This document shows, one piece after another, positions 29,144 to 32,824 of a stretch of DNA of 64,000 bases. Within the stretch, counting starts at the first letter, position 1. Each line of letters opens with the position of its first letter. The position numbers and the translations under genes are program-made. The DNA lies in NCBI RefSeq assembly GCF_000143535.2, contig NC_037324.1, positions 558,001-622,000 of the forward strand, in the 5' to 3' direction. A model generated the notes under the pieces. That model had not been told where the DNA came from. It did no database searches and worked only from the letters and a program-made list of their open reading frames with translations. Source of the stretch: Botrytis cinerea B05.10 (lineage: Eukaryota; Ascomycota; Leotiomycetes; Helotiales; Sclerotiniaceae).

Positions 29144-30039
29144 AAGGGAATTGGGCAATTAAGGAGGAACCGAAAATTAGAAAGGCGTTTTTGGAATATT
29201 TATACCAAAGAGGAGTTGAAAATGATAAAGGATAGGATAAAAGTGATAAAGAAATTCTCATAATTGAATTGGATTTGGTATTTGTACTCCCATCTGTTTA
29301 ACATGTTATCTCATTTAGCGATAGTGAATCGGACATGTCTTCTTTACTTCTTGATTGTGGTGTTGAGACCTGGGTTGACAGGTTTGATAATATTAGAGAA
29401 GATATATACCAATCCGATGTCATACACTGGTATTCACGCCGACTGGAGGACTACTGAGTGAATGTAATGGGAATGGGAAATGTAATGTGGATATTCTAAG
29501 TACTCATCGCTTTCATGTCTCTATTTTATGATCTGGATATGTATCCTGACATTCACCATTTCCTTCATTTTCACCCATATACGATGTCATGAGATACTAA
29601 ATATCAAATGAATTTACGTATAAATTTTAGCGTGAGATTTTAGCGTGAAATGTATTCTGATATGTGGGAGGGAGAGAAAGAGAGAGTTCATGAAAATAAC
29701 CGAGAGGATTTACAGGTAGTCAGGAGGCGAGGAAGGGGGTTTTGGGGATTTAGATTTGGTAGCGAAAAGATTGGAATAGAGAAAGTAGAGTAAGTAGTCT
29801 TTGAATTTTTTTCTTCTTGAATTGATAGGTTTTTGGTCATACGTAGTGTTAGCGAGATTGCGGAAGATTTTCCTGGTGTGTGTTCATCAAATCAAGAGGG
29901 ATGCATAGGTACTTGGCTATCTAGGCGAGGGAGAAATAATATCGAGATATCAAGATATATCAAGCCTCTCGTGATATCACCTGCATCTGCATCTGCATCT
30001 GTATCTGTATCCTGCATAGATACGAATCTACGAAGCAGA
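29144..30039. other. Intergenic region downstream of MTD1
   Basis: 3' flank of MTD1, then G-rich plus-strand sequence leading into the repeat array. A short direct repeat TTTTAGCGTGA occurs twice at about 29625-29648. (CTGCAT)3(CTGTAT)2 lies at 29981-30010. No gene is seen. Confidence 0.5.
29981..30010 (+). repeat. Hexanucleotide repeat (CTGCAT)3(CTGTAT)2
   Basis: Five tandem hexamers, the last two sharing a C-to-T change, directly before the first copy of the 29-nt block. Confidence 0.8.
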
Positions 30040-30344
30040 TTTTGTTGCATGTCTGTATTTCACGCCCAGAATATAGTGTAGTACCAAGTGTCATGTGTGA
30101 TACGCGGTTCATTCCTCAATGTTCTCTCGTGTGCACTCGGAGAGTCTTTTGTTGCATGTCGGGATTTGCGCCCAGGGAATCGAGCGGATTTCGTGTGGAT
30201 GCTAAGGACTGGGAGGTCTTGGTATCAGGCAGAGTGGCTTGGAGATGCTTGGGTAGTAGATGGGGGGTTCTTTTTGTTGCGTGTTGTATTGGCTTCCGAG
30301 CATAGAGATTAATGGGATGATGAGGGATTGTGGTTACTTGTGTG

Positions 30345-30377
<33 letters not shown>

Positions 30378-31414
30378 TGATAAGGACTTTTGTTGCATGC
30401 CAGAGACTTGGGTGTGGTGCTCGCGGAAGATTCATTTTTGGACAACAAGCTCTGTGCCCCGAGAATCAGGCGTGATGGAAAGAGGGGCTTGTTTGATTGC
30501 TTTTGTTGCATGTCGATATTTCCGCCCAGTATGCCTAGTATGCCTAGTATACCCAAGACACTCGGCGGAATGATGGTATTGAGACTTGAGGGTCTTGGTG
30601 TGGTGAGGAATGATATGCAGATGCTTTTGTTGCATGTCAGTAGTTGCGCCCAGTATGCCCAAGAAACTCAGCGGAATCATGATATTAAGACGTAAGGATC
30701 TTAGTGCAATGAGCAATGGTATGCAGATGCTTTTGTTGCATGTCGGTATTTATGCCGAGAGAATCAAGTGCGTTAGTTTGTACATCGAGGTCTGTTACAT
30801 ATCTATATTTATACCGATGCTTCGTCACCGTGACACAAGGATGTTAGATATGGTGACATGAATGATGTATCTGAAGGTGCGGTCTGTCGACTCGAGAAGT
30901 TTTGTTGCGTATCGTATCTCATGCCCAGAGGTGCGATATCTTGGTCTGGATACCAAGGACATTTCCGCATAGAGTTTAATCTTATTCTTGCGCCGCGTGG
31001 TCCGATGTGATACTCTCGCATGATGCATCTGGCAGTCAAGAGTCTTGCTGTTGCATATCGTCAATCTTGCCCAGATAATCGGCCATACTCTCACTGGTTC
31101 ATCTGTCCATCAAAAGGAACGTTGCATGTCTTTCTTCTCGCCCAGATTCTTGGTCAACGTATTCGCCAATATCTCGGTGTCATACCAAAGCCCCTCTCAG
31201 TCATGCCGCGGGTACTGCGGGTATGCTAACTAACTTGACGACTGAATCACTTTGTTGCACATCTATCTTCTTGCCCAGGAAACCTAGGGAATCTTGGTGT
31301 CCTCGCCAATTTCTTGGTGTGCGACCAAGATCCTCGGATGAAAGTCCTCGGCAATAATCAGGGCGAGAATCGGTGTTGGAGGGGCTTTTGTTGCGTATCT
31401 GGATTCTTGCCCAG
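30040..31414 (+). repeat. Array of a degenerate 29-nt block with irregular spacers
   Basis: Copies of TTTTGTTGCATRTC-n(5-9)-GCCCAG start at 30040, 30147, 30272, 30388, 30501, 30625, 30731, 30791 (very degenerate), 30900, 31045, 31121 (5'-shortened), 31251 and 31386. Intervals are 60-145 bp, most often 106-125. The 5' half (TTTTGTTGCATGTC) and the closing GCCCAG are best kept; the middle varies. The copy at 30388 keeps only its first half. A second phrase, TCTTGGTGT, recurs between blocks (30592, 30937, 31292, 31311, 31438). Spacers are otherwise mostly unalike. This is not a CRISPR array (eukaryote, irregular, degenerate) and not a plain tandem repeat. Insertions and deletions inside blocks break any reading frame, so coding is unlikely. 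Confidence 0.8.
30347..30376 (+). repeat. (GT)15 microsatellite
   Basis: Fifteen uninterrupted GT units lie inside the spacer before the fourth copy of the 29-nt block. Confidence 0.95.
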
Positions 31415-32824
31415 AAAACCTAATATGCTAGTCTGTGTCTTGGTGTTGTCTGGAAAAACTTTTGGAAAAACTTTAGAAACCCGAGTTGGACGAGCTCCTT
31501 GGCTTTTTCGTGTTCTCGGTACCGAGATTCTCCAAGGAGATGATGGAGAATGTGGAAAGAAGAGATTGTCTTTTGGGGAGCTGGACAGTGGGAATGGCTG
31601 GACTAATTTTGGATTTGGGGGCTGATCATACATTGACTGCTATATATATATCGGTAAACATATACATTCCCCATCAATTGCATCTCATCGTTCGAAATTC
31701 GGAGAGAAAAGCGACAAACAACACGAGGTACACCTTCCACGCCGATGCCAAGATTACCCCTTGACGATGAAGAAAAAAGCAAAAAATGCAAGAAAAAAGA
31801 AAAAAAAAAAGCTCAAACCTCCGAAATGACCGGCAAATAAAACAAGACAACCCCAAGACGCCGGCCGGTATCCAAGATCAAAACGCAAAACACAAGCAAG
31901 AGAGTTAATTTAGTAAATGCTGGGCATAAATCCAGACGTGCAACAAAAGACCAAAATCGAGCCGGAAATCACGAGTCTCGCTCCTCGTCCTGGAAGTGGA
32001 CGCAAAAATACTACTTGGTACTAGTCTCTAGGTTTGTGTGTTTCATATCTTGGGAGAAGCTTGGGGTCTGTCAAACATCAAACGTGCCCAGATTGCCGAT
32101 GCCAACGCCGACGCCCGAGGCATTGAGATGGAGATGGGGATTGGGATTGGGATTGGGAGGGGAGTGTATGATGCATATGCAGAGTCTTGAATCAATATCC
32201 ATCTTGGCGCATGAGCAATTGGCAATTGGTTTCGTGGCACTACTCATGTTTGGTTTAGAAATCACTTGCTAGAGGCTCGTATTAATATGGCTCTCTCCCT
32301 CTGTCTTTCACACTCGGGTAGATGTACTTTGTACAATACAACACAATACAATACAATCAGATAAGATCGGGATCAGGGTAAGCGGATGGACGGTGGAGCA
32401 TCCAAGCACACAAAACATCAAAAGAAGGTTTGCAGGAACGACGCACCGAAATTACTCCACGGGAAACCGACGAGTAGACGTCGAACAACGTTTCAACGTT
32501 TCTGTCTAAGAGAGCAGGGGAGAGGGGAGAGGGGATGTATGGGCTGATGCTGCATTGGCGGATAAGAATTTAAAGTTGCTGCACAGGGTATCACTTGTGA
32601 ACTTCTGGGGTATGAAGGATCTTCATAAGTATCTACTGCCCCAAGATTTTGATGTCATTCTTTCATTGATTCGAGATTCTTACATGATATTCCAACCGTT
32701 CATTTTGACTTGTCGTCTTCAACGTCACCAGAATCATCACACCTCCCATCCCACAACAACCACATCTCCATTAAAACCCCATACCCCATAACCCAACCAC
32801 CCAACCCCAACCTCAACCTCAACC
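31415..32824. other. Intergenic region after the repeat array
   Basis: It contains the inverted block copy (listed separately), an A-rich stretch (31789-31812), three GGGATT units (about 32137-32157) and CAATA-type pentamers (32330-32360). The last 130 bp are almost free of G on the plus strand. No gene is supported. Confidence 0.5.
31920..31948 (-). repeat. Inverted copy of the 29-nt block
   Basis: On the minus strand the sequence reads TTTTGTTGCACGTCTGG followed by ATTTATGCCCAG. It matches 24 of 29 positions with the direct copy at 31386-31414 and lies 505 bp beyond it. It is the only clear copy in this orientation. Confidence 0.8.

What the first reader, a model, noticed from the sequence alone, without database searches (positions are those of the whole stretch)
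30040..31414. Array of 13 degenerate 29-nt blocks with irregular unique spacers in a 3.7-kb gene-free gap
TTTTGTTGCATRTC...GCCCAG recurs at 30040, 30147, 30272, 30388, 30501, 30625, 30731, 30791, 30900, 31045, 31121, 31251 and 31386. The block ends are kept while the spacers have diverged and vary in length (intervals 60-145 bp). In a neutral decaying tandem repeat, block and spacer should decay together, so selection on the block itself (a protein-binding site or RNA element) is worth testing. A plus-strand long non-coding RNA, a replication or boundary element, or a decayed minisatellite are the options.
Basis: seen in the sequence. Interest (0 to 1): 0.78.

Follow-up and report, generated by a model that had tools for sequence, protein, structure and literature searches.

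The report
Clustered unknown protein-binding sites in fungus
The repeated blocks are real and belong to a genome-wide family: a 16-letter DNA word that occurs hundreds of times in this fungal genome, often in tight clusters that mostly add their own second word, which looks like an undescribed set of protein-binding sites rather than a decayed repeat.

Summary
It is not local. The left half, TTTTGTTGCAYRTCTG, is a genome-wide motif: five disjoint exact patterns give 355 matches in 42.6 Mb, the reversed patterns 1. Of the 347 places listed, 195 lie in 61 clusters (random mean 8.5). Most flanks are unrelated, so it is not a dispersed transposon. In the 19 arrays I read, the core is universal; in 12 of them a 12-15 bp tail, about 20-32 bp from the core start, is shared within the array but differs between arrays (window: TATTT..GCCCAG). 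Overall the tail excess is z = 20, while flanks are near background. At other loci the core has positioned partners: CACGTG and oriented CCAAT upstream, and an extended tail with TTGACGTAA at four loci on four chromosomes. Best reading: homotypic clusters of composite protein-binding sites, one shared unknown factor plus locus-specific partners. Hairpin RNA and a plain decaying minisatellite are disfavoured. Against: among young duplicates the tail is not better kept than the spacers. The protein, the target genes and conservation in other species are unknown; no relatives were searchable.

The parts
29236..32824 (.). gene-free gap between the MTD1-like gene and the MAPEG gene
   Evidence: no ORF of 150 aa or more; flanking genes by Pfam
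30040..30069 (+). block 1, 30 nt, core and GCCCAG tail
30147..30175 (+). block 2, core and GCCCAG tail
30272..30300 (+). block 3, core (GTGTT variant) without the GCCCAG tail
30388..30416 (+). block 4, core without the GCCCAG tail
30501..30529 (+). block 5, core and GCCCAG tail
30625..30653 (+). block 6, core and GCCCAG tail; part of the 106-bp tandem duplication 30542-30748
30731..30759 (+). block 7, core and GCCGAG tail
30790..30818 (+). block 8, degenerate (GTCTGTTACATATC..ACCGAT)
30900..30928 (+). block 9, core and GCCCAG tail
31046..31074 (+). block 10, core and GCCCAG tail
31117..31145 (+). block 11, core from GTTGCATGTC on, GCCCAG tail
31250..31278 (+). block 12, core and GCCCAG tail
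31386..31414 (+). block 13, core and GCCCAG tail

Best explanation
The array is a homotypic cluster of composite DNA-binding sites, one of at least 19 such arrays that I read in this genome. SHOWN: each site has a core of about 16 bp (TTTTGTTGCAYRTCTG) that also occurs hundreds of times elsewhere; in most arrays an adjacent tail of 12-15 bp is shared within the array and differs between arrays; at other loci CACGTG and oriented CCAAT lie at preferred distances upstream. INFERRED: one sequence-specific protein, not identified, binds the core; locus-specific partners bind beside it (here at TATTT..GCCCAG); sites repeated every 60-145 bp make a cooperative module in a long intergenic gap that acts on chromatin or on transcription of a neighbour (MAPEG start 0.9-2.8 kb downstream, the MTD1-like gene 0.8 kb upstream, or an unannotated transcript). 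Copies multiplied by local tandem duplication; selection kept the sites while spacers drifted.
For: 355 exact matches of five disjoint core patterns v 1 for the reversed patterns; 411 v 31 with two mismatches. Unrelated flanks. 195 of 347 listed sites in 61 clusters v random mean 8.5, maximum 24. Tail +16..+33: identity 0.372 within arrays v 0.280 shuffled, z = 20.1, 186 copies, peak at +23..+25. CACGTG at -33..-8 in 12 of 69 groups v background mean 1.1, maximum 4; CCAAT at -52..-26 in 20 of 69 v 9.2, maximum 15, while ATTGG gives 10 v 9.0. Extended core-TTGACGTAA-CCAAT-CGAGCGCAAA order at four loci. The inverted copy keeps core and tail.
Against: Among young duplicate pairs the tail has more differences (93 of 340) than the aligned spacers (255 of 1523; p = 1e-5), although tails were compared without gaps and spacers with gaps. 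7 of the 19 arrays have within-array tail identity below 0.35. Upstream and +34..+51 flanks are also slightly above shuffled (z 3.0-4.4). The CCAAT window was chosen; in the open k-mer scan only CACGTG survives correction, made within each word length. The window's own array has neither CCAAT nor CACGTG there. Neighbouring genes tend to face the sites with their 3' end (18 of 23), unlike simple promoters, and share no theme. No binding, accessibility or expression data.
Confidence: 0.68

Rival explanations
1. RNA element: the arrays are transcribed as long non-coding RNAs, and core plus tail is a repeated site for an RNA-binding protein (compare Mmi1 sites or Xist A-repeats, both recalled).
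For: Prevailing orientation: 103 of 134 neighbouring sites in clusters are on the same strand, and several arrays are wholly on one strand. Sites often lie on the 3' side of genes.
Against: Tandem duplication gives the same orientation. Some arrays are mixed (L029, L077, L078, L080, L085, L088) and the window's inverted copy is well kept. No clear hairpin signal, no Rfam match at gathering score, no consistent strand skew.
Confidence: 0.13
2. Polar barrier or boundary: the core binds a roadblock protein (Reb1/TTF-I-like, recalled) that stops transcription or replication forks or insulates neighbours.
For: Long non-palindromic site, arrays in long gaps, 3' ends of genes facing the sites in 18 of 23 cases (62 v 40 to 23 v 10 at other thresholds), prevailing orientation.
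Against: The 3' bias is modest and rests on crude gene calls. Private tails and CCAAT / E-box partners are not expected. Mixed orientations occur.
Confidence: 0.12
3. Remains of a dispersed repeat or minisatellite with no function; the core is what is left of old copies.
For: Loci on C1, C2, C11 and C13 share 72-275 bp at 69-85% identity. Some units are plain tandem duplicates.
Against: Among loci in hand, matches beyond these four are short (most 21-43 bp). A sharp 16-bp core in unrelated flanks is not how neutral copies decay. The whole-genome search with the array DNA could not be run.
Confidence: 0.07

Closest known systems
Homotypic clusters of transcription-factor sites with composite partner sites (general concept, recalled)
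   Same: Repeated short motif, variable spacing, unrelated spacers, either orientation in some arrays, positioned CCAAT and E-box neighbours.
   Different: Motif and factor unknown; the second half is private to the array and repeated with the core; sites lie in long gaps with a 3'-side tendency.
CENP-B box / alpha-satellite arrays (recalled)
   Same: About 17-bp non-palindromic box repeated in arrays; some letter resemblance of the core.
   Different: Several arrays per chromosome, unrelated spacers, no satellite; key box letters differ; no link to a CENP-B-like protein shown.
Clustered TTF-I / Reb1-type sites downstream of transcribed regions (recalled; abstract of PMC3772059 seen in the listing)
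   Same: Clusters of a long directional site, often on the 3' side of genes.
   Different: Dispersed among unrelated protein genes, not rDNA; private tails.
Pairing-centre motif arrays of C. elegans chromosomes (recalled)
   Same: Clusters of a short motif with locus-specific letters that could serve as an address.
   Different: Two parts, universal and private; several arrays per chromosome; no data on pairing.

Membership tests
Homotypic cluster of protein-binding sites | Same motif repeated at one locus above chance | tested here: met
   13 v maximum 4 in shuffles in the window gap; 61 clusters genome-wide v random
Homotypic cluster of protein-binding sites | Motif recurs independently of flanking sequence | tested here: met
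   exception: four loci with shared flanks
Homotypic cluster of protein-binding sites | A protein binds the motif | not testable with these tools
   no binding or accessibility data
Homotypic cluster of protein-binding sites | Slower evolution of site than spacer | tested here: inconclusive
   paralogous copies: core slower (34/320 v 255/1523, p = 0.005, pairs not independent), tail faster (93/340); no other species available
Structured RNA repeat (lncRNA) | Conserved base pairing in the block | tested here: not met
   tail stems 3.81 v 3.58 shuffled, similar excess downstream; small palindrome excess 0.12-0.14 (SE 0.04) v -0.005 to 0.10 in control stretches; no pair stands out in 690 tests
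Structured RNA repeat (lncRNA) | Transcribed | not testable with these tools
   no RNA data
Dispersed transposable element | Long shared sequence between copies at different loci | tested here: inconclusive
   not for the window against loci in hand (best 21-43 bp); met for four other loci (72-275 bp); whole-genome search unanswered
CENP-B box | Essential bases of the box and binding by a CENP-B-type protein | not tested
   resemblance recalled only; HTH_Tnp_Tc5 domains exist (24 matches) but nothing links them to the core

The most novel reading that the evidence does not exclude
The genome carries a two-part address system: one shared protein reads a universal 16-bp core, and each array adds a private tail, repeated through the array, read by a different partner. 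Dozens of gene-free loci would be individually addressable hubs for expression, chromosome organisation or pairing, of a kind not known to me from filamentous fungi.
Probability: 0.16. Interest if true: 0.85.

Novelty: new variant of a known kind. Interest (0 to 1): 0.62.

Why it matters
A motif with hundreds of copies and dozens of clusters in what is probably a well-studied plant-pathogenic fungus points to a DNA-binding protein with a large, unnamed target set; I saw no report of it in the listings I could search (capped lists). The arrays are ready-made bait to find that protein, and the private tails are a natural test of how a shared factor is combined with local partners.

Tried and rejected
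RNA hairpin in the tail: palindromes seen by eye in several arrays are at most weakly enriched, and similar excess is seen in control stretches. Known RNA family: none at gathering score; one chance-level match at E = 0.94 in the gap. Coding: no site lies in a called coding frame (0 of 70 loci; one search's non-coding model was trained near the sites, so it is partly circular, and many genes were missed). Two coding scores were useless, one too insensitive, one too unspecific. Strand skew of spacers: none consistent. Pathway promoter: flanking genes are unrelated. Tails as a few shared classes: only one extended tail is clearly shared between loci. Plasmid collection: no match. Papers, letter strings: searches (125 papers, 20 listed; 28, all listed; 4,397, mostly by the two genus names, 15 listed; 40, 20 listed): no fungal cis-element among the titles listed; one Sclerotinia hit was read as a passage and is a primer. 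Papers, topics: (listings). PMC8637145 and PMC12566771: passages only.

Full report
CHECK. The window lies at G000:C15:558001-622000 of a 42,630,066-base genome in 18 contigs. From the contig sizes I take it to be Botrytis cinerea B05.10; that is recall, not a tool result (only gives the lineage of that name). Two of the 13 lack the GCCCAG end and one is degenerate throughout. Chance is excluded: 13 plus-strand sites with up to 3 mismatches in the gap v a maximum of 4 in 200 dinucleotide shuffles. The gap is bounded by a tetrahydrofolate dehydrogenase gene and a MAPEG gene.

THE CORE IS GENOME-WIDE. TTTTGTTGCATGTC has 43 exact matches in the genome; the pattern read backwards has none. Five disjoint exact patterns that together describe TTTTGTTGCAYRTCT(G) and its first-base variants give 43 + 59 + 106 + 45 + 102 = 355 matches, the reversed controls 1. 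With two mismatches to TTTTGTTGCATGTCTG there are 411 v 31. The whole block with its GCCCAG end, up to 3 mismatches in 22 fixed bases, has only 14 matches, 7 of them in this array, control 0: the left half is genome-wide, the right half is mostly local. Flanks of the copies are unrelated by eye and by column counts (38 sites outside the window). In 203 unique seed sites the information content falls to near zero outside about -1..+20 (positions 1-9, 12 and 13 were fixed and 11 limited to A/G by the seed, so only the others are informative; the window's copies are among the 203).

CLUSTERING. The tool listed 347 of the 355 places. Linking sites within 1.5 kb gives 61 clusters of two or more that hold 195 sites, and 152 single sites; 500 random placements give a mean of 8.5 clustered sites, a maximum of 24 and never a cluster above 4. 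The window's array has 7 of these strong sites and is among the five largest clusters. With weaker sites the 20 array loci hold 4 to 15 copies over 0.5-4 kb. Of 30 loci with one strong site, 8 have further good sites in the fetched 2-4 kb: 11 extra sites where 1.3 are expected from one background site in 61.8 kb of the window.

TWO-PART BLOCK. For 20 loci (19 arrays; L081 and L005 belong to one) I aligned the copies on the core. Many arrays keep the core and add their own tail: TATTT..GCCCAG in the window, AATgCTACCTTc in L033, CCGAgATC in L005, GCGG.....tCC in L088, ttccttgcTTttt in L085, TCGGCGACCT in L084 (four copies), taATata in L042. The test used 186 of 190 copies (4 near-duplicates dropped): identity over +16..+33 is 0.372 within arrays v 0.280 after label shuffling (200 shuffles, z = 20.1). 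The controls are slightly above shuffled too: far upstream 0.266 v 0.257 (z 3.0), upstream 0.275 v 0.260 (z 4.4), +34..+51 0.277 v 0.259 (z 4.4), +60..+77 0.258 v 0.256 (z 0.6), core 0.790 v 0.785 (z 1.6). The excess peaks at +23..+25, so it looks like a discrete second element. Within-array tail identity is 0.35 or more in 12 of 19 arrays; the other seven (L023, L029, L077, L078, L079, L082, L083) show little or none. The window's inverted copy carries the same tail as its plus copies.

PARTNER SITES. In the DNA in hand (316 sites in 69 groups of loci, chosen partly for clusters, of 213 clusters and singles) CACGTG lies at -33..-8 in 12 of 69 groups v mean 1.1, maximum 4 in 23 background windows. 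CCAAT lies at -52..-26 in 20 of 69 v mean 9.2, maximum 15; its reverse ATTGG in 10 v mean 9.0. In an open k-mer scan only CACGTG survives Bonferroni correction, made within each word length (0.026); the CCAAT window was chosen, so its weight is softer. Loci on C1, C2, C11 and C13 share core - TCGAAATTGACGTAA - (A/G)CCA(A/G)T - CGA(G/T)CGCAA in that order over about 72-85 bp. The window's array has neither CCAAT nor CACGTG at these places.

EVOLUTION. Some neighbouring units are still full tandem duplicates (30542-30748 here; 137-139-bp units in L075). In duplicate pairs with recognisable spacers the core has 34 differences in 320 positions and the spacers 255 in 1523 (p = 0.005, pairs not independent); the tail has 93 in 340, more than the spacers (p = 1.4e-5). 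Tails were compared without gaps and spacers with gaps, which works against the tail; still, this result does not support constraint on the tail among young copies.

CONTEXT. No site lies in a called coding frame (0 of 70 loci). Where a long frame is near, its 3' end faces the site in 18 of 23 cases; with a second caller 62 v 40, 35 v 22, 26 v 12, 23 v 10 and 17 v 6 at rising thresholds. Among neighbours with a Pfam match my tally is 13 of 18 (two of the 13 are below the family cut-off). This is a modest bias against simple promoter elements. The neighbours (XLF, ankyrin, histidine phosphatase, permease, OTU protease, MAPEG and so on) have no common theme.

WHAT IT IS. A DNA element bound by a sequence-specific protein explains the sharp core, the mixed orientations, the unrelated flanks, the clusters and the positioned partners. 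An RNA element is not excluded but its only positive evidence is prevailing orientation (103 of 134 neighbouring pairs), which tandem duplication also gives. The protein is unknown. A CENP-B-like or Myb-type long-site binder is a lead from memory; the genome has 24 HTH_Tnp_Tc5 matches with nothing to link them. The step from 'bound' to 'regulates a gene' is inference.

NOVELTY. Four letter-string searches and four topic searches of the open-access library showed no report of this motif among the titles listed; most lists were capped, and subscription papers and supplements were not searchable. I rate it a new variant of a known kind: homotypic site clusters are known; a universal core with array-private tails is not known to me.

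Noticed in passing
L046:1243-2194, L075:2117-3467, L050:1024-1573, L078:1144-1227: Second repeated composite at four loci on four chromosomes: CCAATAG, five bases, CGAGCGCAAA, in both orientations and partly with the core. Could be a second genome-wide regulatory element.
   Followed up: partly
window 30339-30376: A TG dinucleotide repeat (19.5 copies) lies inside the array between blocks 3 and 4, the two copies that lack the tail.
   Followed up: no
G000:C10:1294961-1295152: Best HTH_Tnp_Tc5 (CENP-B type) match of the genome, E = 4.8e-18, in a 438-aa open frame; many others look like transposon copies.
   Followed up: no
L025:2078-2150: Two perfect cores facing each other 59 bp apart (start of one to end of the other 73 bp), a convergent pair; 7 of 33 two-site clusters are convergent and 2 divergent.
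   Followed up: no
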